Source of the DNA: Candidatus Hydrogenedentota bacterium
Lineage (GTDB): Bacteria > Hydrogenedentota > Hydrogenedentia > Hydrogenedentales > CAITNO01
Assembly (NCBI GenBank): GCA_012523015.1
Contig: JAAYJI010000236.1
Span: 1-43,835, forward strand
Direction: 5' to 3'
DNA: 43,835 bases
Of the stretch, positions 5,155 through 40,608 are shown piece by piece (positions within the stretch are counted from its first letter, which is position 1; the number at the start of each line of letters is the position of its first letter). The notes below the pieces were generated by a model. It searched no databases. It worked only from the letters and a program-made list of their open reading frames with translations, and had not been told where the DNA came from. Position numbers and translations under genes: made by a program.

Positions 5155-7809
5155 ATGATGAGGAAACATCTCTGGATAGCAGGTCTTGCCTGTCTCATAG
5201 TTACGGTGTCTTTCGCGGTGTATGCCCTTGGCGCAGATGCCGCTGCCGGCGAATTGAGAGAAGCTTCGACGCCTCCCGACGCGATAGAGGATACCACCTC
5301 CTCGCAGGAGGTGTCGCTTACAGATACCTTGCTCAGCGTTGCGAAAGCGGGCGAGTTGTACGCGGCGTTGGATATGGTGAAGGCAGGCGCTAAAGATGAG
5401 TTGCGCGATGAAGAGGGCAAGAATGTGCTTCTCATTGCCGCGGAAAATCAGCATCCTGAGTTGGTCCGCGCCCTGCTCGATGGGGGCGACGATTTGATGG
5501 CGCAGGATTTGTTGGGGAATACAGCCTTGCATCTTGCGGTCAAAGCCAATGACGTATACACAGCGGATATGCTTATTGAAGATGGTATTCCACTGAACGC
5601 TGTCAATTCAGAATTTTATTCTCCGCTCCATGTTGCCGCTGCCGCAGGCAGCTTTGACTGTGTCCGCTATCTTGTGGAGCACGGTGCCAACCCGATGGAA
5701 AGTTTTAATGATGCACTCTATTTGCCTGCTTATACCGTTGCCGGTCAAGCGCGACAGTGGGACGTGACCGCTTATTTCCGCGAGCAAGGCGCTGATATGG
5801 GGCCTTTGAGCAATGCAGGGACGGGCGATATCCGCGCCCTGGAAGAATACGTTGAAAATGAGCCCACCGCCCTTTCCATGGCAACCCGTGTGGGGATCAC
5901 CCCATTGCACAGTGCTGTTGGCGGCAATCAAGTGGAAGCGGTGCGCTTTTTACTCGAACATGATGTTCAACCTGCCCCTTCCTATGAAGGGATAACGCCG
6001 CAGATGTCTGCCGTACGTTTAGGCTATACGGAATGTCTGCGAGCATTCTTTGAGTTTGAAGTGACTCCCAACGATCGCGCGCCCGATTTCTATGGGTACA
6101 CCTTGTTGATGCAGGCAACACGGGACGGTAATGTGGACATGATGCAATTTCTGATTGATCAGGGAGCCGATATGGGCTATCCCTCTGTGCGCGGTGATAC
6201 GGCACTTCACGCCGCGGTGGAATGGGATCAGCCGGAGGCTGCCCTCTTTCTGCTTGACCAAGGATTCATTATTGATATTAAGAACGGCAGCGCCTGTTCA
6301 GCGCTGCATCTTGCCGCGGAAAAGAACAAAATAAAGATGGCACGGTTATTATTGGATCATGGTGCCAGCTTGGATATAACGGATAAGCGCCGCTGGACAC
6401 CGCTGCACATCGCTGTGGACAGTAATCATTTGGATATGATTCAATTGCTGCTGAACCGTGGAGCCAACATAAGCGCTCCCGATAAAGTGGGTGATACGCC
6501 CTTGCTTCTTGCGATACAAAAGAAAGAAGAGAAGGCGGCATTGTTGATGATTGCCAAAGATCCCGATCTTTCTGTTGTCAACGAAAAAGGGGAAGGCCCC
6601 CTGTATCTGGCTTCACGGAACGGGCTGTTAAGCGTGGTGAAGTCGCTTTTAGACAAAGGCGCTCCCGTTGATACGGACGACGACCTCGGTCAGACGCCTC
6701 TCTACGCTGCGCTGCAAAAAGATCATTACGAACTTGCCCGTCTATTAGCCGAGAAAGGTGCTGACCTGCATCGGATGAGTAATCTGGGCGAATCGTTGCT
6801 CTTTCCCGCCGCTTACAGTGAAACCGCCGATGCATTGACGTGGCTTTGCGATGCGGGGCTTGATGTCCATATTCGTGCGGAGAATGGGTTGACGCCGCTT
6901 CATATGGCAGCCCGTTACGGATCGGAAGCGCCTGTTATTTTTCTGTTGGAAAAAGGTGTTGAAGTAAACGCGCAAGATGTGGAGGGGCGGACACCGCTGC
7001 ATCTGGCTTCGGGGAGAGGGCACATTATTAATGTGCAGGAATTGGCCAAAGGCGGTGCCGATCTCTTTTTAAAAGATAAAGAAGATCAATACGCCTTGCA
7101 TGCCGCCGCCCGAAACGGCCATTGGGGACCGGTACAATTATTTCTTGTGCGCGGCATTGATATTAATTCGCCTGACATCCATGGAGATACGGCGCTGCAT
7201 TTGACCGCCCGCGGCGGCTTCCATCGTACAGCGAAACTGCTGCTCGTTCGCGGCGCTGACTTTACACTGTTGAACAAAGCGGGGGAGACGCCTTTGGTAT
7301 CGGCGATGAACGCTTTTGCCACGTTGGACGAAATGGAGGAGCTCAGCTCGTCTCAGTTGGCGAGCAAAAATGCGCTGCGCAGCACCGTCCTCTTTTACGA
7401 AGCGGTCGTGATTGACGAATATCGTAATGCTGTGGAGCGGTCGGATGTAACGTTTTTGAAGCGATTGCTTGCCGTCTATGAAGACTACAAGGACGCGGCA
7501 TGTTTCGGGTGCACGCCCGTGTATCGTGCCGTGCGCAAAAAAGATCTGCCCGTCCTGCAGCTCTTATTGGATCACGGCGCAGATCCTTCTTTATGCGCTT
7601 TGAGTGATGGCAGCCAAAGCCCGCTTCACCTTGCCGTACACGCTCGCAATGCGGATCTTGTGCAAGTCTTATTGGATGCCGGAGCGCCGGCGGATACGCC
7701 TGATGGGCAAGGCATGACCCCTCTAGATTTGGCAAAAAAAGAAATTCTTCCGGAAATTGCAGCGCTTCTTAAAAATGCAGGAGATACCCACACAACTGAA
7801 GAGGAATAA
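5155..7809 (+). CDS. Large secreted ankyrin-repeat protein
   Basis: This 884-residue protein begins with a signal peptide: MRK, a hydrophobic stretch to about residue 24, then an ALG-ADA-like cleavage site. After a short linker, about two dozen ankyrin repeats of roughly 33 residues fill the rest. Typical units read G-x-TPLHxA...G...VxxLLxxGAD, for example GLTPLHMAARYGSEAPVIFL and GRTPLHLASGRGHIINVQEL. Ankyrin solenoids bind proteins; no catalytic domain is visible. The repeats have diverged, so this is an old array rather than a recent expansion. Start may be ATG 5155 or 5158; CAAGGA at 5145-5150 suits 5158 slightly better. The next gene, a membrane metallopeptidase, starts one base after the stop, so the two products probably work together. 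Partner and function are unknown. Confidence 0.9.
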   Translation: MMRKHLWIAGLACLIVTVSFAVYALGADAAAGELREASTPPDAIEDTTSSQEVSLTDTLLSVAKAGELYAALDMVKAGAKDELRDEEGKNVLLIAAENQHPELVRALLDGGDDLMAQDLLGNTALHLAVKANDVYTADMLIEDGIPLNAVNSEFYSPLHVAAAAGSFDCVRYLVEHGANPMESFNDALYLPAYTVAGQARQWDVTAYFREQGADMGPLSNAGTGDIRALEEYVENEPTALSMATRVGITPLHSAVGGNQVEAVRFLLEHDVQPAPSYEGITPQMSAVRLGYTECLRAFFEFEVTPNDRAPDFYGYTLLMQATRDGNVDMMQFLIDQGADMGYPSVRGDTALHAAVEWDQPEAALFLLDQGFIIDIKNGSACSALHLAAEKNKIKMARLLLDHGASLDITDKRRWTPLHIAVDSNHLDMIQLLLNRGANISAPDKVGDTPLLLAIQKKEEKAALLMIAKDPDLSVVNEKGEGPLYLASRNGLLSVVKSLLDKGAPVDTDDDLGQTPLYAALQKDHYELARLLAEKGADLHRMSNLGESLLFPAAYSETADALTWLCDAGLDVHIRAENGLTPLHMAARYGSEAPVIFLLEKGVEVNAQDVEGRTPLHLASGRGHIINVQELAKGGADLFLKDKEDQYALHAAARNGHWGPVQLFLVRGIDINSPDIHGDTALHLTARGGFHRTAKLLLVRGADFTLLNKAGETPLVSAMNAFATLDEMEELSSSQLASKNALRSTVLFYEAVVIDEYRNAVERSDVTFLKRLLAVYEDYKDAACFGCTPVYRAVRKKDLPVLQLLLDHGADPSLCALSDGSQSPLHLAVHARNADLVQVLLDAGAPADTPDGQGMTPLDLAKKEILPEIAALLKNAGDTHTTEEE

Positions 7810-7810
7810 G

Positions 7811-9022
7811 ATGGAAGAAGAACACTCAGAAGAAACGGCCGTTCCGCAGCCGCGGAGGTCATTGCGCAGACATGGTCTTTTTATTCTTATGTCTTTGGTT
7901 CTTTGGGTACCTCTTGGGTTGTGGTACTTTTTCCAACCTGCTCCGGCTGTCGTCGAAAAGCTCTATAGTTGCGGCTTCTACCCGGTTATGGCAAAGCTCA
8001 TTATACCGGTGACCTCGTCGTTTCCTTTTTCCTTATCTCTCCTTATGGTCGCCGCAGCGCCCTTTTTATTCATCGTGCTGTGGATCCTCGCTTGCGTTAT
8101 GGGCTACCGGCGGCATCAGCGTTTTCGCTGGCGGGGACTGTTGTGGGGGCCCAAATGGCTGCTCTTTGTTATTCCGCTTATCTGGCTTTGGTTTTTAATT
8201 TTTTGGGGCATGGGCTATGCCCGTCAACCCATTGAAGAACGCTTAGCCTTTGACGGGGAAGCAGTGTCTGCAGAAGAATTGGCCTCTATCAAGGAAGGGC
8301 TTTTTCAGGTGATTGATCGCGACCAGCCGCAAGAGGACTCGGATCGAAACATTGCTGAGGCGCTCGCCTCTGTGTCCAAATCCATGGAGCAGATGGTGAA
8401 CGGTTGGGAAGGTAGTTCAAAACGTATTCCAAGACGTGTTAAGGCGACGCCGCCGGGGTTGCTGCTCATGAACGGCACCTCTGGTGTTTGTGCGCCTTTT
8501 ACGCTGGAGCCTCATGTAGATGGCGGCCTTCCCGACACATGGTTTGTATCCGTAGGCGCTCATGAGCTGGGCCATATTGCGGGGGTTTGTGATGAAGGGG
8601 AAACCAATCTGATTAGTTATATTGCCGGGCTTCAGGCCGATCATCCCTATGCACGCTATGCCGTGGCATTAACCGTCTACGTGAGTGTCGCCAACCAGTT
8701 GACTGCTGAAGAGCGTAAAGAGGCGATAGCCAGACTGCCGGAACAGGCACGTGCGGATATCCAAGCTGCCCATGAGGCAGGACAGAAGTATCGTATTGAC
8801 TGGTTTCAGAAATGGAGTTGGCGCGCCTACAATCATTATCTAAAATCTCAGGGAGTTCGGGAAGGGGTACGCAGCTATGGGCGTGGCACGCAGCTTTTGG
8901 TTCAGGCGTGGCGCAGCGGCTATCTCACGCTGCCTGAGTCTCCTTCGTCATCAGCAGCGGCAGAGACCGAGGAAGAAGAGTTGACCGCGGCGGAAGTGGA
9001 GTCAGCTTCCATGGAATTATAG
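7811..9022 (+). CDS. DUF3810-type membrane zinc metallopeptidase
   Basis: About 403 residues from ATG 7811, chosen because GAGG just upstream gives a good ribosome site and it follows the ankyrin stop by one base. Hydrophobic helices lie near residues 19-38, 70-95 and 110-135, followed by a soluble domain. Around residue 251 it has HELGH, preceded by SVGA and followed by IAGVCDEGETNLISYIAGLQ. Together these form an HExxH zinc site with a downstream glutamate, the pattern of the poorly characterised DUF3810 family. Catalysis at the membrane, with the active domain probably outside the cytoplasm, is inference. The C-terminal 35 residues are acidic and Ser/Glu/Ala-rich. Coupling to the secreted ankyrin protein suggests that one recruits or presents substrates to the other. 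Confidence 0.8.
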   Translation: MEEEHSEETAVPQPRRSLRRHGLFILMSLVLWVPLGLWYFFQPAPAVVEKLYSCGFYPVMAKLIIPVTSSFPFSLSLLMVAAAPFLFIVLWILACVMGYRRHQRFRWRGLLWGPKWLLFVIPLIWLWFLIFWGMGYARQPIEERLAFDGEAVSAEELASIKEGLFQVIDRDQPQEDSDRNIAEALASVSKSMEQMVNGWEGSSKRIPRRVKATPPGLLLMNGTSGVCAPFTLEPHVDGGLPDTWFVSVGAHELGHIAGVCDEGETNLISYIAGLQADHPYARYAVALTVYVSVANQLTAEERKEAIARLPEQARADIQAAHEAGQKYRIDWFQKWSWRAYNHYLKSQGVREGVRSYGRGTQLLVQAWRSGYLTLPESPSSSAAAETEEEELTAAEVESASMEL

Positions 9023-10269: not shown

Positions 10270-12042
10270 TTAGGGTAAAAGTTCATCTTCCACCGGAAGA
10301 TATACAGGCCCAACTTCGAAGATGGCAACACTGTTTGCGCCTCGTTTACAATTGTAGGCGGCGGTGGCGTAGAGAGTAGGTATCAAGGAACTGCGCATGC
10401 CCGCATAATTTTCGGACAGAGGATTTTCCAACATGACCATGGAGGAAGAAGGAGTCTCCAATCGGGCGCGCGACACGTTTTCCCTACTTGAGAAGGACCA
10501 GTTAAGCACTTCTGTAAGGCCTAATGCAGCGAGTCGGTGCCGCAATGCGCGCAAGGTTTTCTCTTGGGGCGCAAAAATTATCTCAGACTGGCGTACAGGC
10601 GGCATAGTGACGGGGATTCGGTCATAGCCGTAATGACGAGCGATTTCCTCAATCAGATCGGCTTCATGGGTCACATCGTGGCGCCACGACGGCACTTCTA
10701 AAAGGCAGTCCTTCTCCCGAACCTGACTTGCGGTGAATCCCAGTTTTTTCAAAATTGCCTGTTGTTCTTCTTTCGCAATTGCCACGCCGAGCAGCCTGTC
10801 GGTCCGATCAAAGCGCAAGCGGACTTGAGGCGCTACGTGTTTTTCAGGATAGGCATCCAAGACGCCCGGCGCTACAGAGGCGCCGGCGAGTTCCTGCATT
10901 AAGGCGGCGGCACGATTTAAGGCGTAGGGCACCATATTGCAATCGGCGCCGCGCTGGATGTTTTGTGCCGCTTCCGTTAAAAGCGCGAGTTTTCGTGCAG
11001 TAGAACGAATGGATCGGGGCGTAAAATAGGCACTTTCGAGAAAGACATGTTTGGTGTTAGCGTCTACTTCGCTGTCGAAGCCGCCCATGACACCGCCCAC
11101 AGCTTGGGGATTTTTGGCGTCAGCGATTACGAGCATATCTTCTGTGAGTGCGTGCTCTTGTTCATCCAGCGTTTTTATGCCTTCTCCCGGTCGGCTGCGC
11201 CGCACCACAATCCGATTTTCGGCGAGTTTATCAAAATCAAAGGCGTGCAGCGGGTGCCCGGTTTCCAACAACACATAGTTGGTAATGTCGACAATGTTAT
11301 TGATAGGGCGTTGACCGGCTGCGATCAGCCGTGCGCAAAGCCAGGGAGGAGAGGCTTGGATAACCACATTGCGCAAGACACGGCCGGCATAGCGGGGGCA
11401 TAAATCCGGGTCTTCAATGGTGACGCCGGAGACTTCTTTGGCTGCAGTGCCTTCCTCGTCTAAGTGAATTTCGGGCAGTTGCAGAGGAAGGTTGTAGTAG
11501 GCGCTCAATTCGCGGGCGACCCCGATCATCCCTGCCCAGTCGCCGCGGTTGGGGGTTACTTCGATTTCGAAGACCACATCATTTAGGCCCAAGACCTCTT
11601 TGATATCGGCGCCGATGGGGGCGTCGGGATCAAGAATCATGAGACCTGCATGCTCTTCTCCCAATCCCAATTCGCGAAGTGAACACATCATGCCGCAGGA
11701 TTGGACGCCCCGCATTTTCCTGTTTCCGATTTTGAAGCCGCCGGGGAGGCAAGATCCATCAATGGCGGTGGGCACTTTGTCGCCGACTTTCATATTTGTT
11801 GCGCCGCAGATAATTTGGAGGGGCTCCTCTCCGCCAATGTTGGTTTGGCATACCACCAGTTTATCGGCGTCGGGATGGGGCTGGATGTCCACGATCTGCC
11901 CCACATAAATATCTTTGATCTCTTTGCCGGGCTCTCGGATCGCTTCAATTTCCATTCCGAGCATGGTCATACGTTCCGCAAGTTCTTCCGTACTCACTTG
12001 CAGCGGCACCAATTCTTTTAACCAGTTCAGTGATATTTGCAT
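10270..12042 (-). CDS. pheT: Phenylalanyl-tRNA synthetase beta subunit, N-terminal part, cut by an in-frame TAA
   Basis: 590 residues of PheT, which with PheS forms the (alpha-beta)2 enzyme charging tRNA-Phe. The N-terminal EMAP/OB tRNA-binding domain (IYVGQIVDIQPHPDADKL, SCGMMCSLRELG) is followed by the B3/B4 editing region (TPNRGDWAGMIGVARELSAY), the B5 domain (VRLRFDRTDRLLGV) and the start of the catalytic-like module (LTEVLNWSFSSRE). It ends abruptly at VYLPVEDELLP with TAA at 10270-10272. The next codons in the same frame read EVPTLAVLLCG, the expected continuation. There is no frameshift and no homopolymer at the site. pheS ends one base upstream of this gene. The break may be a consensus error, a real mutation or recoding. 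Confidence 0.92.
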   Translation of the reverse strand: MQISLNWLKELVPLQVSTEELAERMTMLGMEIEAIREPGKEIKDIYVGQIVDIQPHPDADKLVVCQTNIGGEEPLQIICGATNMKVGDKVPTAIDGSCLPGGFKIGNRKMRGVQSCGMMCSLRELGLGEEHAGLMILDPDAPIGADIKEVLGLNDVVFEIEVTPNRGDWAGMIGVARELSAYYNLPLQLPEIHLDEEGTAAKEVSGVTIEDPDLCPRYAGRVLRNVVIQASPPWLCARLIAAGQRPINNIVDITNYVLLETGHPLHAFDFDKLAENRIVVRRSRPGEGIKTLDEQEHALTEDMLVIADAKNPQAVGGVMGGFDSEVDANTKHVFLESAYFTPRSIRSTARKLALLTEAAQNIQRGADCNMVPYALNRAAALMQELAGASVAPGVLDAYPEKHVAPQVRLRFDRTDRLLGVAIAKEEQQAILKKLGFTASQVREKDCLLEVPSWRHDVTHEADLIEEIARHYGYDRIPVTMPPVRQSEIIFAPQEKTLRALRHRLAALGLTEVLNWSFSSRENVSRARLETPSSSMVMLENPLSENYAGMRSSLIPTLYATAAYNCKRGANSVAIFEVGPVYLPVEDELLP

Positions 12043-15230: not shown

Positions 15231-16565
15231 TTAGCGAAGATTACGCATGAGCGCCACGCTGTTGGTGGACCATAGCGCTACGGCAATATCGGGATGTCCG
15301 TCATTATCCAAATCGGCGATTTTTAAGGTTCGTGGTTTACCAGGATTAAAGGCATAGGTCTCTGTGCGGAATTGCTGTCTGGCTGAGCTGTCTGTCGACG
15401 TGTTCAATAACACCACCACATTGCCCGAGGCATGACAAGCGGCGACGATATCCTTTCTGCCGTTTCCGTTTAAGTCGGCCACAGCAATAGCCCGTATTTC
15501 ATGTTCGAGGGTGTTGCGGTCTTTTCCAAGCATCAATTCTTGCGACATAGAGTAGGAGAAAGGACCGTCTCCATAAAAGATGACAATGGAGTCGTCTGTG
15601 TGGGCGTGGCTTGTTACGATGTCCGGTTTGCCGTCGTTATTCATGTCTTCCACAACCACCGTAGTCGGCAATTCGCCGCGCGTTTTGAAACGGGTCATGG
15701 GGATAAACCCGCCTTTGCCTGTTCCGCGAAATAAAGCGATTTCTCCCGTCGTGTAAAGGGTTACGACGAGGTCGGGAATGCCGTCTCCGTCCAGATCCGA
15801 TAAGGCCATGGCACAAGGGCCGCCGGAAACAGGAATATATTGGGGGGAAGCGAAGATCGTTTCGCTATGCCCCGCCATGAACAAGATAATGTCGCTGCTC
15901 CAGCCGGTAGCCAATAAATCGCGTAACCCATCTCCGTTTAAATCGCGGACTAAGACGGAAGTCAGTCCCGGCACGGTGAATAGGGGAATCCCTTCTCCGT
16001 CGCGATGGCACAGATAATCCATTCCTGTCTCCGGGATTTTAAACTCGAAGGGTGAAAAGACATCTTCATCTTTGAGATTTAAAAAGACAGAAATATGCCG
16101 TTGACGTGAGGCGAGAAAGTTGACCGTTATAATATCAGGCCATTTCAAATTGTCCACATTGGCAATGGCAATGGCATAAGGGGCGCTGCCCGCTTTCAGT
16201 GAGGGATGCCGCCTCGTATATTCGAAAGCTTTATCTGCCATGAGTATGGACAATTCATCATTGGCGGGCCTTTCTTCGCGGGGATCGTGAAGTTCACCGC
16301 GATCAGCTGTGATGATGTCGGGCAGCCCATCTCCATTTAAATCGGCTATGGCAATGTCATTTGGATTGGGCCCCACTTGCCAGGTTTTTGAGAGCACGGA
16401 AAAACTGCGCCCCTGATTGTCGCCCATGACGGTCAGGGGAAAGAATAAAAGATATGCTGTCAACAAGGACAGTAGAAGAACGTTCCCCTTGTGCGGAAAG
16501 GCGGGACGACTTCTGTTTACAGGAGTACCATGATTGAGAAAAAACTGTAGCCTTTGCGATGTCAT
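15231..16565 (-). CDS. FG-GAP/VCBS-repeat beta-propeller protein
   Basis: About 444 residues from ATG 16565, nine bases after the pdxA stop. A membrane or signal segment (NVLLLSLLTAYLLFFPLTV) near residues 28-46 is followed by seven calcium-type repeats of the form D-[LMV]-[ND]-x-D-G-x-x-D-[IL]. Examples are DLNGDGLPDIITAD, DLDGDGIPDLVVTL, DMNNDGKPDIVTSH and DLDNDGHPDIAVAL. Seven blades make a complete integrin-alpha-like propeller, so the protein appears whole. Such propellers mediate binding outside the cell; no enzyme domain is present. The long basic region before the hydrophobic segment could be cytoplasmic, or the true start may lie nearer the segment. The coupling to pdxA looks positional rather than functional. 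Confidence 0.85.
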   Translation of the reverse strand: MTSQRLQFFLNHGTPVNRSRPAFPHKGNVLLLSLLTAYLLFFPLTVMGDNQGRSFSVLSKTWQVGPNPNDIAIADLNGDGLPDIITADRGELHDPREERPANDELSILMADKAFEYTRRHPSLKAGSAPYAIAIANVDNLKWPDIITVNFLASRQRHISVFLNLKDEDVFSPFEFKIPETGMDYLCHRDGEGIPLFTVPGLTSVLVRDLNGDGLRDLLATGWSSDIILFMAGHSETIFASPQYIPVSGGPCAMALSDLDGDGIPDLVVTLYTTGEIALFRGTGKGGFIPMTRFKTRGELPTTVVVEDMNNDGKPDIVTSHAHTDDSIVIFYGDGPFSYSMSQELMLGKDRNTLEHEIRAIAVADLNGNGRKDIVAACHASGNVVVLLNTSTDSSARQQFRTETYAFNPGKPRTLKIADLDNDGHPDIAVALWSTNSVALMRNLR

Positions 16566-16573
16566 AGAGATTC

Positions 16574-17599
16574 TTATTTCTCTTTCATCCGCGTCGCTGC
16601 CCACTGTGCCGTCAGGTTCATGGCGGCACACAGGCTGTTTTCTCGGGCTCGTCCTGTTCCAGCAATATCATAGGCTGTTCCGTGATCCGGTGAGGTGCGG
16701 ATAAAGGGCAGCCCCAAGGTCACATGGACACCATCATCCATGGCAACCAATTTGAAAGGAATATGTCCCTGATCATGATACATAGCGATGACCAGATCGA
16801 ACTCTCCATTATACGCGCGATTAAATACGGTGTCGGGCGCAAGGGGTCCTGCACAATCGATACCGCGGTTTCTGGCTTCCATGGCGGCCGGTCGGATTTC
16901 ATCGATCTCTTCGCGGCCGAAAGCACCGCCTTCTCCGGCATGGGGATTCAAGCCTGCCAGCACCAGACGGGGATGGGGAAAGCCCAATCGGCATAGGGTG
17001 TCATATCCCATTTCAATGGCTTGAAGGACCAGATCTTTTTTAACGGCCGCCACCGCTTCCGCCATGGATAGATGGGCGGAAATATGGACAATGCGAAGGC
17101 GTTCATGGAAAAGACTCATGTGGCAATGCTCTACGCCGGCAATGGATTGAAGCATGGGCGTGTGGCCGGGAAATTTAGAGCCGGAACGAAGGAGTCCCTC
17201 TTTGTTGACCGGACAGGTTACGACGCCGTGGATTTGTCCTGCCATGGCGAGGCGCGCGGCTTTTTCAATCCACACTGCCGCTGAGCGCGACGCTTCCGGA
17301 TCCAGTACGCCCGGCTGGATTGCGGGAGCGGGAGCGCCTGCATTCATGATGGGTACAGCGGGAGAAGACAAATCAATTTCTTTGACGTCGGTAATCTCGT
17401 AGAGGGGCGGCATGGAACGTATTGTTCTGCCCGCATTTTCCAGAGCCGCCTTATCGCCGATCACCAGAGGCAGACAGCAGTCTTGCCAGTTTCGAGACGA
17501 TAAAGCTTTGGCCAATATTTCCGGGCCAATGCCGTTGGGATCACCCATAGTCAGGCCAAGTATAGGCCGAATTAAAACCGGTTTCTTATCCTGTTGCAT
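16574..17599 (-). CDS. pdxA: 4-hydroxythreonine-4-phosphate dehydrogenase
   Basis: This 341-residue NAD+- and Zn2+-dependent enzyme oxidises 4-phosphohydroxy-L-threonine in DXP-dependent pyridoxal phosphate synthesis. Visible motifs are LTMGDPNGIGPEILAKAL at the N-terminus, TCPVNKEGL and KFPGHTPMLQ, a metal histidine in HISAHLSM, GLNPHAGEGGAFGREE, and YHDQGHIPFKL (metal histidine) followed by LPFIRTSPDHGTAYDIAG. PdxA2-type paralogues in sugar-acid degradation share these motifs. The absence of catabolic neighbours favours PdxA proper. Start ATG 17599 has GAGGAGTG about ten bases upstream. It heads a two-gene unit with the FG-GAP protein. Confidence 0.93.
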   Translation of the reverse strand: MQQDKKPVLIRPILGLTMGDPNGIGPEILAKALSSRNWQDCCLPLVIGDKAALENAGRTIRSMPPLYEITDVKEIDLSSPAVPIMNAGAPAPAIQPGVLDPEASRSAAVWIEKAARLAMAGQIHGVVTCPVNKEGLLRSGSKFPGHTPMLQSIAGVEHCHMSLFHERLRIVHISAHLSMAEAVAAVKKDLVLQAIEMGYDTLCRLGFPHPRLVLAGLNPHAGEGGAFGREEIDEIRPAAMEARNRGIDCAGPLAPDTVFNRAYNGEFDLVIAMYHDQGHIPFKLVAMDDGVHVTLGLPFIRTSPDHGTAYDIAGTGRARENSLCAAMNLTAQWAATRMKEK

Positions 17600-29679: not shown

Positions 29680-31002
29680 TTATCCTTGTCTGCCCCGCAG
29701 ATCCACGACGCGCACCGCTTTGCCCGTAGAACGTTCCAGCGTCTGGGGACCAACCAATTCGACACGGGTATGTATATTCGTGGTTGCCTGTATTCTCCGT
29801 ACGATCTGATCGCGGAGCAGCTGCATATCACTCATTTTGTCGGAGAAGACATCGGGACACAATTCCACTTTAACGGTTACTTCGTCTAAGGTTCCCGGGC
29901 GCGATACTTCAATAAGATAATGGGGAGACAGTCCTTCCATTTTAAATAGGGCTTCTTCAATTTGGGAGGGAAATACATTGACGCCGCGGATAATGAGCAT
30001 ATCATCAGAACGGCCGATTACACGGGACATGCGCCGCGTGGTGCGTCCGCAAATACAGGGCGCTGCGTCTAGTGTGGCAATATCGCGGGTACGATAACGG
30101 ATCATGGGCATCGCCTCGCGAGTCAGCGCTGTGATGACCAGCTCTCCGTATTCGAAGTCCATGACAGGATCCAGCGTATCAGGGTGAAGACACTCGACCA
30201 AAAAATGATCCTCTTGGATATGCATGCCTGTCCGTGCTGCGCATTCGCCGCTCACCCCGGGCCCGATGATTTCGGAAAGACCGTAGTTGTTGAAGGCGTA
30301 AAGATCCATTTCAGCTTCTATTTTGTGGCGCATATCTTCAGTCCACATTTCGCCGCCGAAATGGGCAAAGCGCAGGGAAAGGCTCCGAGGATCAATATCC
30401 ATGGAGCGCGCCACTTCCGCAATATTAAGGGCGTAACTGGGCGTGCTGATCAAGGCGTCGGCCTGAAGGTCTTGAAGAATATGGATTTGACGCGCCGTAT
30501 TTCCCGAAGATACGGGGATGATGGATGCGCCGATTTTTTCAATGCCGTAATGCAGTCCAAAGCCTCCGGTAAAGAGCCCGTAACCAAAAGAAACTTGGAC
30601 GGTGTGGCAGGAACGTAATCCGCCGGCATAAAGGAAGCGCGCGCACATCTGCGCCCACATCGCCAAATCCTTTTGCGTGTACCCCACAAAGGTTGGCTTA
30701 CCGGTAGTTCCGGAAGAACCGTGAATACGGGCAAGTTCGCTGCGATCTACGGCGCACAAGCCCAAAGGATAATAATCACGCATGTCCTCTTTAGTGGTGA
30801 AGGGCAGCCGCTTTAAATCATCTAAGCTTTTGATACTTTCCGGAGTAATGCCGTCGCGCTTGAAAATATTTTTATAAAAAGGAACTTTCATGGCCCGTGC
30901 CACTGTTTCACGAAGACGTACCAGTTGCAGTGCGTCCATTTCTTCGCGCGACAGTTGTTCTTCACGATCTAAGATTTGGTTGTCCACAACAAAATCATTC
31001 AT
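29680..31002 (-). CDS. paaK: Phenylacetate--CoA ligase family protein, copy 1
   Basis: 440 residues of the adenylate-forming enzyme that makes arylacetyl-CoA from the acid, ATP and CoA. The P-loop is HGSSGTTGKPTFVGYTQ (about 95-112), followed by YGYGLFTGGFGLHYG, AFNNYGLSEIIGPG and YRTRDIATL. The C-terminal lid has RSDDMLIIRGVNVFPSQIEE. Four cysteines in ARTGM...CICGR-type positions around 310-330 are as in anaerobic PaaK. Substrates could be phenylacetate or indole/hydroxyphenyl acetates. The Shine-Dalgarno is AAAAAGG. It is 131 bases downstream of the ACT gene with no clear internal promoter. Confidence 0.93.
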   Translation of the reverse strand: MNDFVVDNQILDREEQLSREEMDALQLVRLRETVARAMKVPFYKNIFKRDGITPESIKSLDDLKRLPFTTKEDMRDYYPLGLCAVDRSELARIHGSSGTTGKPTFVGYTQKDLAMWAQMCARFLYAGGLRSCHTVQVSFGYGLFTGGFGLHYGIEKIGASIIPVSSGNTARQIHILQDLQADALISTPSYALNIAEVARSMDIDPRSLSLRFAHFGGEMWTEDMRHKIEAEMDLYAFNNYGLSEIIGPGVSGECAARTGMHIQEDHFLVECLHPDTLDPVMDFEYGELVITALTREAMPMIRYRTRDIATLDAAPCICGRTTRRMSRVIGRSDDMLIIRGVNVFPSQIEEALFKMEGLSPHYLIEVSRPGTLDEVTVKVELCPDVFSDKMSDMQLLRDQIVRRIQATTNIHTRVELVGPQTLERSTGKAVRVVDLRGRQG

Positions 31003-31133
31003 GGAATAGACCTTTTTGAGAAGGGGTAGATGATCGCCTTCATGAGAAGTAGGATATGTTGAGATAGAACGATACCCGGTATTGATTCTTAAGATGATAT
31101 ATAAACACGCATCGACAAGCTCAGAATAGGCTG

Positions 31134-31571
31134 TTAATGGCTTCGGTCATAAAGTTCCACACCGTTAACAACATTGATATTTTGAGCCTGAAGTGCTGCA
31201 ATGGCTTGATCAGGGTTATCGAAACGAAAGACGATGACCGCCTTGTCATCACAACGGAAAGTGAAGGCATACATATATTCGATGTTCAATCCGGCGTTTT
31301 CGATAATATCAAGAATTTTTATGAGCCCGCCGGGCCGATCTTCTACTTCTGTGGCAACCACTTCTGTAACGTTCACGACGCCGCCGGCACTTTCCAATAC
31401 CTGCTTGGCTTTTTCCCAATCGCGCACGATGAGCCGCAGAATTCCGAATTGCTGCGTATCCGCCACCGACAAGGTCAAGATGTTAATACCCGCTTCAGCG
31501 AGTAAACGACATGGCTCACTCAAGTGTCCCGGTTTATTTTCTAGGAACATGGACAATTGCTGTATTTTCAT
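31134..31571 (-). CDS. Tandem ACT-domain protein
   Basis: 145 residues from ATG 31571 (AAGGAA 8-9 bases upstream). Two ACT domains in a row: IQQLSMFLENKPGHLSEPCR (about 3-70) and TEVEDRPGGLIKILDIIENA (about 74-140). ACT pairs bind amino acids and regulate enzymes. Stand-alone proteins of this kind are often encoded beside PaaK and indolepyruvate ferredoxin oxidoreductase genes. The likely ligand is an aromatic amino acid or its derivative, which is inference. It lies between two ligase genes on the same strand (gaps of 99 and 131 bases). There is no membrane or DNA-binding segment. Confidence 0.9.
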   Translation of the reverse strand: MKIQQLSMFLENKPGHLSEPCRLLAEAGINILTLSVADTQQFGILRLIVRDWEKAKQVLESAGGVVNVTEVVATEVEDRPGGLIKILDIIENAGLNIEYMYAFTFRCDDKAVIVFRFDNPDQAIAALQAQNINVVNGVELYDRSH

Positions 31572-31670
31572 CTCACGTATTCCTTTTCTTTTACCCGGTA
31601 CAGACAAAGAGTATCAAGAAACGGCCGTACCGGTATGTACCGTTTTGTTAGACGCAATGAAAGGGGTTGC

Positions 31671-33002
31671 TTATGATTTCCGCATATCCAAAACCCGCTT
31701 CGCTTTGCCTTCACTCCGTTGTATAGAGTTCGGTTCCACCAAGCGCAGTTTAACCCTGATATTAATAATGCGTTCGATGGAAGCGGCAAGCCGTTTTTGA
31801 AGCGTTTCCATCGTGCGTATCGTATCACCGAATACTTCCGGCGTAACCTCCACATGTACTTCCACATCGTCCATGGTCCCGTCATTGGTCAACACGATCT
31901 GATAGTGGGGAGAAGTGCCTTCCACAGCGAGAAGCGCTGTTTCAATTTGGGATGGATAGACGTTAATGCCGCGAATGATAAACATGTCATCACTCCGTCT
32001 GGAAATGCGGCGCATTCGGCGGATCGTCCTGCCGCAAGGGCAGCATTCAGTTTCTAACGAGGTGATGTCACGGGTTCGGTATCGAATCATAGGCATGGCT
32101 TGTTTGCTTAAAGTAGTCAACACCAGCTCACCTTCTGTTCCGTCGGGAACAGGCAGCAGCGTTTCCGGATCAATGATTTCCGGATAAAAATGGTCTTCAA
32201 AAATGTGCAGCCCTTCTTGAACTTGACATTCATTTGCCACGCCCGGCCCGATGATTTCAGAAAGACCGTAAATATCATAAGCCTTAATATGGGCTTCCGG
32301 CTCAATACGTTTGCGCATCTCTTCGGTCCAGGGCTCGGCGCCGAATACGCCGGCTTTAATCGGCAGTGCACGAATATCTACGCCCAGTTCGGGAGCACGT
32401 TCAAGAATACGTAAAAAATAACTGGGCGTGCAGCAAATGGCAGTGGCACGGAAATCTTTCATGAGCATGATTTGACGGTCTGTATTGCCGCCGGAAATGG
32501 GAATGGCCGTTGCGCCGAGTGCTTCCGCGCCGTAATGAGCACCGAGTCCTCCGGTGAACAATCCGTAGCCATAGGCATTTTGGATGACGTCGCTTCGGTC
32601 CAGTCCGCAGGCGGCAAAAGAACGTACCATCACGTTGGACCAAACCCGTAAGTCTTCTTGCGTGTATGCGACCACAATGGGTTTTCCCGTGGTACCGCTT
32701 GAAGCGTGGAGGCGTACAATGTCGCTCATGGGACTGGCAAATAAACCGAAGGGATAGGTATCGCGCAAGTCCGATTTAACGGTAAAAGGCAAGTCTTTCG
32801 CATCGTCAAGGCTGCGGAAATCTTCGGGACTCATGCCTCGTTTTTGCATACGTTCACGAAACAAAGAAACGTGGTCGTAAGAACGTTTAACCACGGCTTG
32901 AAAACGATGTAACTGCAGTTGTCTCAGTTGTTCCAAAGGTAAATAATCCGGACCGCTCGCCGGATGAAAGGAACAACCTCCATCATGCCAGTATTCACCC
33001 AT
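31671..33002 (-). CDS. paaK: Phenylacetate--CoA ligase family protein, copy 2
   Basis: 443 residues with the same plan as copy 1: P-loop HASSGTTGKPIVVAYTQ, YGYGLFTGGLGAHYG, AYDIYGLSEIIGPGVANECQ, YRTRDITSL and lid RSDDMFIIRGINVYPSQIE. The N-terminal 20 residues differ from copy 1 (GGCSFHPASGPDYLPLEQL). The two copies are clearly paralogous but far from identical, so they may activate different aryl acids or serve in opposite flux directions. A CPCGR segment near residue 333 matches the CICGR of copy 1. A sigma-70 promoter with a dyad at its -35 lies about 90 bases upstream. Confidence 0.94.
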   Translation of the reverse strand: MGEYWHDGGCSFHPASGPDYLPLEQLRQLQLHRFQAVVKRSYDHVSLFRERMQKRGMSPEDFRSLDDAKDLPFTVKSDLRDTYPFGLFASPMSDIVRLHASSGTTGKPIVVAYTQEDLRVWSNVMVRSFAACGLDRSDVIQNAYGYGLFTGGLGAHYGAEALGATAIPISGGNTDRQIMLMKDFRATAICCTPSYFLRILERAPELGVDIRALPIKAGVFGAEPWTEEMRKRIEPEAHIKAYDIYGLSEIIGPGVANECQVQEGLHIFEDHFYPEIIDPETLLPVPDGTEGELVLTTLSKQAMPMIRYRTRDITSLETECCPCGRTIRRMRRISRRSDDMFIIRGINVYPSQIETALLAVEGTSPHYQIVLTNDGTMDDVEVHVEVTPEVFGDTIRTMETLQKRLAASIERIINIRVKLRLVEPNSIQRSEGKAKRVLDMRKS

Positions 33003-39912: not shown

Positions 39913-40608
39913 TTAGTCGGATTCGCTGCGTCGTTGACCTGATTCACCGCGTCGTTGGTCGGGGCCGCCTCGGGAGCCTCGGGGTCCGCGTGGCCCGCCC
40001 ATAGAAGCTCGGGCAGCTCTTAATTGTTCAATGCTTAGCTTACCGGCGTCCTCGGTATCCAATTCTTTGAAACGTTCGCGGCTGGCTTGTTGGTGGACCT
40101 TCAAAAATTCTTCTTCGCTGATTAGATCATCTTTGTTCGTGTCATATTCTTCGAAGGTCGGGAAAGAGCGACGACCGGGAGTATAGGATCTTCTCGGTTC
40201 ACGATCAGAGAGACGTTGCCCTTGTGCTTCCCTATCGGGCGGTGGGGGCGGCGGATTGGCACCGTCACCGCGGCCCATTGCCCTGCCGCGCGGGCGATTC
40301 CCTTGGTTGAAGGGCCTCTCAAATTCTTCTCGGCTCAGGTTGCCGTCATCATTGCTGTCCAGTTGTTGAAAACGACCTTTCATGAGCTTGTCGTTGCCGT
40401 CCACGTATTCTTGAGCACTAACAAAGCCGTCCTTGTCCGCATCAAAATCAGCGGGGTCAAGTCTCATCGGTCGGGTTCCACCTTCGAATCTGTCTTGTGC
40501 CGGTGGTGGCGGCGCTTCGCTCGAATCGGGCTGTGCCCACAGGCTGCCTGTAGCCAGTAAGGCGGCGGTCAGCATAAAACATCCGGTCACCATTACATTC
40601 ACTTTCAT
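39913..40608 (-). CDS. Periplasmic EF-hand protein
   Basis: 231 residues with a signal peptide (MKVNVMVTGCFMLTAALLAT, cleavage after LWA). Two EF-hand pairs follow: DADKDGFVSAQE and DSNDDGNLSREE (about 56-100), then DTNKDDLISEEE and DTEDAGKLSIEQ (about 155-200). Loop 1 is close to canonical; loops 3 and 4 lack the usual Gly at position 6 or an acid at position 5. Between the pairs lies a Pro/Arg-rich linker (GANPPPPPPDREAQG), and the tail is Arg/Gly/Ser-rich. Ca2+ binding in the periplasm is likely. AAAGGAG precedes ATG 40608. It is transcribed from a sigma-54 promoter and followed by the kinase-regulator pair. Confidence 0.88.
   Translation of the reverse strand: MKVNVMVTGCFMLTAALLATGSLWAQPDSSEAPPPPAQDRFEGGTRPMRLDPADFDADKDGFVSAQEYVDGNDKLMKGRFQQLDSNDDGNLSREEFERPFNQGNRPRGRAMGRGDGANPPPPPPDREAQGQRLSDREPRRSYTPGRRSFPTFEEYDTNKDDLISEEEFLKVHQQASRERFKELDTEDAGKLSIEQLRAARASMGGPRGPRGSRGGPDQRRGESGQRRSESD

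What the first reader, a model, noticed from the sequence alone, without database searches (positions are those of the whole stretch)
5155..9022. Secreted giant ankyrin protein coupled to a membrane metallopeptidase
An 884-residue exported ankyrin solenoid is followed one base later by a DUF3810-type HExxH membrane protein. Bacterial ankyrin proteins are often cytoplasmic or effector-like; a periplasmic one paired with a protease suggests a substrate-capture or inhibitor-protease pair in the envelope.
Basis: partly seen in the sequence, partly recalled or inferred. Interest (0 to 1): 0.5.

Follow-up and report, generated by a model that had tools for sequence, protein, structure and literature searches.

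The report
Exported giant ankyrin with shifting partners
A large exported ankyrin protein in an uncultured bacterial phylum does sit beside a membrane metalloprotease-like gene, but across relatives its more widespread neighbour is a secreted sugar-cutting enzyme, so it looks more like a companion for that enzyme than one half of a protease pair.

Summary
Window 5155-7809 encodes an 884-aa ankyrin protein (24 repeats in the model) with an N-terminal export signal. One base later, 7811-9022 encodes a 403-aa DUF3810 (PF12725) membrane protein whose HExxH-G-E site is invariant in 25 of 25 aligned sequences. The window belongs to a Candidatus Hydrogenedentota MAG. Among 60 genomes, this DUF3810 type occurs in 21, all with a long ankyrin orthologue, but the two genes are adjacent in only 9, all in three genera of one family. 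The more widespread partner, invisible in this window, is a secreted GH30 glycoside hydrolase. It lies directly upstream on the same strand in 23 of 35 ankyrin-positive genomes, in five families and down to about 30% ankyrin identity. In the window's own genome GH30 is on another contig, still beside its transporter genes. Best reading: an exported ankyrin partner or scaffold for a carbohydrate-processing envelope module, resembling AnkB-KatB or Bd3460-Bd3459, with DUF3810 joined in one clade. Physical binding to either partner is inferred, not shown. No paper on the GH30 coupling turned up in the searches made.

The parts
5155..7809 (+). Exported 24-repeat ankyrin protein, 884 aa
   Evidence: ORF, Pfam ankyrin models, AF2 pLDDT 88.8; long orthologue in 35 of 60 genomes, own included
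5176..5232 (+). Hydrophobic core of the predicted signal peptide or anchor (residues 8-26)
   Evidence: Only hydropathy peak over 1.4 in the protein; hydrophobic N-termini in orthologues, five with a lipobox, read by eye
7117..7155 (+). GHWGPVQLFLVRG block (residues 655-667, repeat 19), most conserved stretch of the ankyrin protein; candidate binding site
   Evidence: JSD scan and per-repeat identity over 24 orthologues; GHW or GYW form in all 22 GH30-adjacent rows
7811..9022 (+). DUF3810 (PF12725) membrane protein, 403 aa, HExxH
   Evidence: Pfam 195 bits, alignment, AF2 pLDDT 70.7
7877..7933 (+). Predicted transmembrane segment 1 (residues 23-41)
   Evidence: Hydropathy peak
8042..8098 (+). 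Predicted transmembrane segment 2 (residues 78-96)
   Evidence: Hydropathy peak
8159..8215 (+). Predicted transmembrane segment 3 (residues 117-135)
   Evidence: Hydropathy peak
8561..8596 (+). HELGHIAGVCDE, predicted metal site (H251, E252, H255, E262)
   Evidence: These residues invariant in 25 of 25 aligned sequences; role as zinc ligands inferred

Best explanation
The ankyrin protein is exported to the envelope and forms a long curved 24-repeat solenoid that binds other exported proteins. Its most widespread link is to a secreted GH30 glycoside hydrolase encoded just upstream in most relatives: it most likely holds, stabilises or restrains that enzyme at the cell envelope as part of a carbohydrate-use module (transporters, oxidoreductases and a sugar-isomerase-like gene nearby). 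In one clade, which includes the window, a periplasm-facing DUF3810 membrane metalloprotease-like protein lies in the same gene string. It may process or clear the ankyrin protein or its clients. Shown: N-terminal export signals, modelled fold, gene order, conserved metal-site residues. Inferred: binding to GH30, binding to DUF3810, protease activity, and which link is older.
For: GH30 lies directly upstream on the same strand in 23 of 35 ankyrin-positive genomes (60 searched), in families f1, f3, f7, f10, f11; one more is cut by contig ends. Gaps are 9-207 bases in the 14 loci where the ORFs as called do not overlap. On the GH30 tree, linked and unlinked copies need 2 changes of label, counting G000 (moved) and G006 (contig break) as linked. 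Both catalytic motifs are present in 15 of 15 GH30 ORFs of 457 aa or more. Other recurring neighbours fit sugar metabolism: Gfo/Idh/MocA oxidoreductase, aldo/keto reductase, thioredoxin-like protein, and a xylose-isomerase-like protein directly downstream in three f7 genomes. In the window's genome GH30 sits on contig C166 with the same symporter and ABC permease. Precedents: Bd3460 binds and inhibits two DD-endopeptidases, one from its own operon (PMC4686830 passages); ankyrin proteins needed for catalase activity and the ank-katE operon (PMC7567364 passages).
Against: In 3 ankyrin-positive genomes GH30 is elsewhere (G000, G017, G030) and in 8 no match was found (G008, G013, G023, G024, G035, G040, G046, G048), so the ankyrin is not strictly tied to it. 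GH30 also occurs without a long ankyrin orthologue in f5 (G051, G052, G054, G058) and f11 (G043), and one GH30 sublineage appears to have moved between families without it. The conserved W657 block persists in g6, where no GH30 was found. No complex was modelled. Shared operon membership alone could explain the linkage.
Confidence: 0.4

Rival explanations
1. One reading: the periplasmic ankyrin protein captures substrates for, or inhibits, the DUF3810 metalloprotease encoded next to it.
For: Adjacent in 9 of 9 genomes of g1, g3, g6, with gaps 1, 1, 4, 12, 31, 57, 63, 166 bases in the eight measured; kept even where no GH30 was found (G008, G013) or GH30 is elsewhere (G000). This DUF3810 type occurs only in ankyrin-positive genomes: 21 of 21 in the 60-genome set (Fisher p 3e-7, genomes not independent). 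In f7 the two lie 10-12 kb apart in 3 of 4 genomes. Metal site invariant in 25 of 25. The DUF3810 tree does not resolve the adjacent rows as one group, so an older adjacency lost elsewhere is not excluded by it.
Against: Not adjacent in 12 of 21 genomes with both; 14 of 35 ankyrin genomes lack this DUF3810 type. G063 (f5) has this DUF3810 type with only a partial ankyrin match. In the ankyrin tree the adjacent rows are one clade within f1 (100/99), which fits a single late gain.
Confidence: 0.22
2. The ankyrin protein is a general envelope scaffold; GH30 and DUF3810 are merely neighbours sharing regulation, with no direct contact.
For: Partners vary by lineage, and long ankyrin orthologues occur with neither GH30 beside them nor this DUF3810 type (G017, G023, G024, G030, G040, G048). 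Conservation at non-framework positions is spread: repeats 1, 3, 16, 19 and 20 are about one s.d. or more above the mean of 24 repeats.
Against: Gene order with GH30 is kept over five families and down to 30% ankyrin identity. Apart from the oxidoreductase, aldo/keto reductase and thioredoxin-like genes, the neighbours clustered mostly differ between genera.
Confidence: 0.25
3. Self-protection: the ankyrin protein inhibits GH30 in the periplasm during export, as Bd3460 does for Bdellovibrio endopeptidases.
For: Same layout of exported hydrolase plus exported ankyrin; Bd3460 precedent (PMC4686830 passages).
Against: A glucanase-like GH30 has no obvious self-target (inference); GH30 occurs without a long ankyrin orthologue in f5; 24 repeats are four times those of Bd3460.
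Confidence: 0.08

Closest known systems
Bd3460 of Bdellovibrio bacteriovorus (periplasmic ankyrin, self-protection against DD-endopeptidases Bd3459 and Bd0816)
   Same: Exported ankyrin protein sharing an operon with an exported hydrolase (PMC4686830, passages read)
   Different: Six repeats against 24; target is a peptidoglycan endopeptidase, not GH30 or DUF3810; inhibition shown there, untested here
AnkB-KatB of Pseudomonas aeruginosa and ank-katE of Leptospira
   Same: Ankyrin gene tied to a catalase; AnkB is called periplasmic and required for optimal KatB activity in a reference title, and Leptospira ank-katE is an operon with a periplasmic catalase (PMC7567364 passages; Howell 2000 seen only as a reference there)
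   Different: Catalase partner, whereas no catalase family was seen among 26 window proteins scanned; much smaller ankyrin (size recalled)
DUF3810 (PF12725)
   Same: Full-length Pfam match, hydrophobic segments, HExxH
   Different: This subfamily has HELxHxAGxxxExE rather than the HEKAHQRGxxSEDEAN of the other type seen in f1-g4 and f5
Human ankyrin-R/B 24-repeat membrane-binding domains
   Same: Number of repeats and superhelix (Foldseek 8cs9, 4rlv)
   Different: Cytoplasmic, eukaryotic (recalled); shared fold does not show shared function
Legionella Dot/Icm ankyrin effectors (AnkX, AnkH and others)
   Same: Ankyrin repeats only
   Different: All far below curated cut-offs; the protein here has a Sec-type N-terminus

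Membership tests
Ankyrin-repeat protein | Ankyrin repeats above Pfam cut-offs and ankyrin solenoid fold | tested here: met
DUF3810 (PF12725) | Match over the curated cut-off along the whole model | tested here: met
   195 bits against 28, profile 1-311 of 311
Zinc metallopeptidase (HExxH type) | HExxH motif with a conserved downstream acidic residue | tested here: met
   H251, E252, H255, E262 invariant in 25 of 25; ligand role of E262 inferred
Zinc metallopeptidase (HExxH type) | Known metallopeptidase fold | tested here: inconclusive
   No Foldseek hit below E 0.86; VIA-align best 3o0y Z 5.6, ERAP2 Z 4.2; model pLDDT 70.7
Zinc metallopeptidase (HExxH type) | Proteolytic activity | not testable with these tools
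   Needs an assay
Bd3460-type self-protection ankyrin | Exported ankyrin sharing an operon with a hydrolase it binds | tested here: inconclusive
   Adjacency to GH30 in 23 of 35 ankyrin-positive genomes, not in the window genome; binding untested
Bd3460-type self-protection ankyrin | Inhibition of the partner enzyme | not testable with these tools
   Needs purified proteins
AnkB-type catalase ankyrin | Neighbouring catalase gene | tested here: not met
   Neighbours are an inositol-monophosphatase-like gene, DUF3810 and ZapA
Dot/Icm ankyrin effector | Score over NCBIfam equivalog cut-off | tested here: not met
   Best 210.8 bits against 600
GH30 (the partner gene in relatives) | GH30 domains over cut-off and both catalytic glutamate motifs | tested here: met
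   PF02055 145.7 bits for the G003 copy; both motifs in 15 of 15 ORFs of 457 aa or more; catalytic role recalled
Endo-1,6-beta-glucanase BT3312 (NF053856) | Score over equivalog cut-off | tested here: not met
   269.7 (G003) and 259.9 (G000) bits against 700

The most novel reading that the evidence does not exclude
A three-part envelope module kept over much of a phylum: a secreted GH30 glucanase-like enzyme, a giant exported ankyrin that docks and organises it at the cell surface, and, in one clade, a periplasm-facing DUF3810 metalloprotease that cuts the ankyrin or releases its cargo. This would be a scaffold-and-clip system for exported carbohydrate enzymes built on ankyrin repeats rather than on cohesin-dockerin or SusD-like parts.
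Probability: 0.12. Interest if true: 0.65.

Novelty: new variant of a known kind. Interest (0 to 1): 0.42.

Why it matters
Exported bacterial ankyrins with a known partner are few (recalled). This one is very large, occurs in over half of the genomes searched of an uncultured phylum, and keeps a glycoside hydrolase as neighbour over wide divergence. If it is a dedicated enzyme partner, it would widen the rule that exported ankyrins serve the enzyme next door, and give DUF3810, a name found in no paper of the searched library, a first functional setting.

Tried and rejected
Dot/Icm effector reading: rejected, all hits below cut-offs and a Sec-type N-terminus. Defence-system reading: the three PADLOC hits of the ankyrin protein (PDC-M72A, Ankyrin, MzaA) look like shared ankyrin repeats, and DUF3810 has none; not pursued. 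Fold match for DUF3810: no clear relative in PDB; the model is only pLDDT 70.7 from 8 sequences, so this says little. W657 as the GH30 contact: not claimed, because g6 keeps it where no GH30 was found and repeat 19 is the top of 24 repeats at z 2.4 only.

The first neighbourhood pass used a longest-ORF rule and put other ORFs over GH30 in L077, L082 and L087. It found GH30 in 19 loci (20 ORFs); the count of 23 genomes comes from the coordinates, set side by side by hand. In one search the GH30 and ankyrin ORFs as called overlap in 5 of the 19 loci because starts were taken too far upstream, so no gap is given for them. G057 (f5), with two ankyrin pieces in frames of 1294-1522 aa, was left out of the 35. 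G060 (f5), outside the 60, has a 286-bit match over residues 128-876 and is not counted. G001 has its ankyrin gene split over two contigs; G006, G009 and G012 are cut at contig ends; the GH30 of G036 next to the ankyrin is a fragment, and those of G002 and G014 are in two pieces. The ankyrin alignment A2 used 29 of 33 rows (L086, L098, L099, L100 left out). The conservation scan used 24 of 29 (L093-L097 left out). The ankyrin tree had 33 rows without G001 and G046. The GH30 tree had 30 rows; the second G016 copy, the G043 copy and the incomplete copies of G002, G012, G014 and G036 were left out. The script stopped with an error after printing the coordinates that I used.

Literature: searches for DUF3810 (0 papers), Hydrogenedentes with ankyrin (2 papers, listing only), Hydrogenedentota with ankyrin (0), and ankyrin repeat with periplasmic, glycoside hydrolase, gene cluster, signal peptide (261 papers hold four of five, 15 listed, none on this pairing by title).
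Full report
Labels.

What is there. Window 5155-7809 (+) encodes an 884-aa protein made almost wholly of ankyrin repeats (Pfam Ank_2 E 2e-115). The AF2 model from seven sequences has mean pLDDT 88.8; only residues 1-56 and 879-884 are below 50. I count 24 repeats from its helices, and the nearest solved folds are ankyrin-1 and 24-repeat AnkB. The only hydropathy peak over 1.4 is residues 8-26, fitting export. Orthologues likewise start with a hydrophobic stretch, and five carry a lipobox (L094, L095, L096, L097, L099; read by eye), so envelope location looks conserved. One base after its stop codon, 7811-9022 encodes a 403-aa DUF3810 protein (PF12725, 195 bits). It has three hydrophobic segments and a charge pattern that puts the HELGH domain in the periplasm. 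H251, E252, H255, G258 and E262 are invariant in 25 of 25 aligned sequences, four of them of the other DUF3810 type.

Where it comes from. Named relatives of the DUF3810 protein are all Candidatus Hydrogenedentota MAGs (7 of 7). The phylum as held is 68 genomes, all in one order. I worked mainly with 60 of them, the window's own included.

How far the pair holds. The close DUF3810 type (E <= 1e-50) occurs in 21 of 60 genomes, and in 22 of 68 at E <= 1e-30. All 60 genomes have some ankyrin match, but a long orthologue occurs in 35: 34 with a match of 323 bits or more, and G046 with two pieces in one 900-aa frame; G057 was left out. All 21 DUF3810 genomes are among the 35 (Fisher p 3e-7, but the genomes are related). 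In the wider set G063 has the DUF3810 type and only a partial ankyrin match. The two genes are adjacent in 9 of the 21: G000, G001, G002, G003 (g1), G005, G010, G015 (g3), G008, G013 (g6). Gaps in the eight measured are 1, 1, 4, 12, 31, 57, 63 and 166 bases. G001 and G002 have no measurable difference in the DUF3810 tree, so I count 8 distinct sequences. In the ankyrin tree these genera form one clade at 100/99 support (G001 not in that tree). In the DUF3810 tree, rooted on very distant rows, the adjacent rows are not resolved as one group. A single late gain is my parsimony reading; old adjacency with repeated loss is not excluded. In f7 the two genes lie 10-12 kb apart on opposite strands in 3 of 4 genomes. 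In the remaining nine genomes they lie on different contigs, and the flanking genes show other neighbours where they were fetched. G006, G011, G009 and G014 (g4, g7) instead match PF12725 strongly and P0002 only weakly, so they carry the other DUF3810 type.

The more widespread partner. In the near relative G003 the order is sodium:solute symporter, ABC permease (PF02653; sugar type by recall), GH30, ankyrin, DUF3810. A GH30 glycoside hydrolase lies directly upstream on the same strand in 23 of 35 ankyrin-positive genomes: G001, G002, G003, G004, G005, G007, G009, G010, G011, G012, G014, G015, G016 (f1), G018, G026 (f3), G022, G029, G034, G039 (f7), G025, G031, G036 (f10) and G050 (f11). G006 is cut by contig ends in a way that fits. 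In G000, G017 and G030 GH30 is elsewhere. In G008, G013, G023, G024, G035, G040, G046 and G048 no match was found. In G000 the GH30 is an intact 493-aa frame on contig C166 with the same symporter and permease upstream, while the ankyrin and DUF3810 genes keep the pheT side of the locus as in G003. A rearrangement between GH30 and the ankyrin gene would therefore explain why the window shows only the protease pair. The GH30 tree needs 2 changes to separate linked from unlinked copies, with G000 and G006 counted as linked. One unlinked sublineage (G014, G031, G036, G051) spans three families with little divergence; G051 has no long ankyrin orthologue, so GH30 of this kind can apparently work alone.

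What kind of enzyme. GH30 domains are clear in the G003 copy (PF02055 145.7 bits, PF17189 46.3 bits). The nearest solved sequence is 5ngk (E 2.2e-55). The BT3312 endo-1,6-beta-glucanase model scores 270 bits but has a 700-bit cut-off, so the substrate is not settled. Both catalytic motifs (recalled) are present in 15 of 15 ORFs of 457 aa or more; the five shorter pieces lack one or both. Other recurring neighbours are a Gfo/Idh/MocA oxidoreductase, an aldo/keto reductase, a thioredoxin-like protein and, directly downstream in three f7 genomes, a xylose-isomerase-like protein; a protein of the same Pfam family also sits on the window genome's GH30 contig. The setting looks like carbohydrate use rather than proteolysis.

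Where the ankyrin may bind. The best conserved 15-residue stretch starts at residue 655, GHWGPVQLFLVRG and on, in repeat 19. A GHW or GYW form of this block occurs in 27 of 33 ankyrin rows, including all 22 GH30-adjacent rows, and is lacking in six f8, f9 and f11 rows, none GH30-adjacent (G030 has a GHW elsewhere). It is also kept in g6, where no GH30 was found, and in G017, so it marks a group of orthologues and is not evidence of GH30 contact.

Mechanism. Most likely (0.4) the ankyrin is an exported partner or scaffold for the GH30 module, with the DUF3810 protein joined in one clade, perhaps to process it. A general scaffold with unrelated neighbours is 0.25. No binding or activity was shown by any search.

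Comparison with known systems. Exported ankyrins working with a neighbouring exported enzyme are known: Bd3460 binds and inhibits DD-endopeptidases (PMC4686830, passages read), and ankyrin-repeat proteins are reported as required for catalase activity in two bacteria (PMC7567364, passages read). This case differs in size (24 repeats), in partner, and in its spread over much of a phylum. The searches listed no paper on it, within a library that lacks most subscription journals.

Noticed in passing
window 10270-10272 (-): PheT is collinear with the 809-aa PheT of G003 at 73.7% identity but carries an in-frame TAA after about 590 codons, in a normally essential gene; assembly error or a real lesion.
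   Followed up: partly
L085, L084, L097, L098, L076: Upstream of the ankyrin gene (with or without GH30) recur a Gfo/Idh/MocA oxidoreductase, an aldo/keto reductase and an exported-looking thioredoxin-like protein in several families.
   Followed up: partly
L116, L119, L122, L132: A closely related GH30 sublineage in G031, G036, G051 and G014 spans three families in the tree and is not next to the ankyrin gene, which suggests recent transfer.
   Followed up: partly
L089, L090, L091: In f7 the DUF3810 gene lies 10-12 kb from the ankyrin gene on the opposite strand in three genomes, a loose linkage outside the adjacent clade.
   Followed up: no
window 29683-33002 (-): Two neighbouring AMP-binding genes with the PF14535 C-terminal domain, phenylacetate-CoA-ligase-like by recall.
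   Followed up: no
window 39916-40608 (-): Protein with EF-hand motifs.
   Followed up: no
window 15234-16631 (-): FG-GAP repeat protein, four stretches of PF13517.
   Followed up: no
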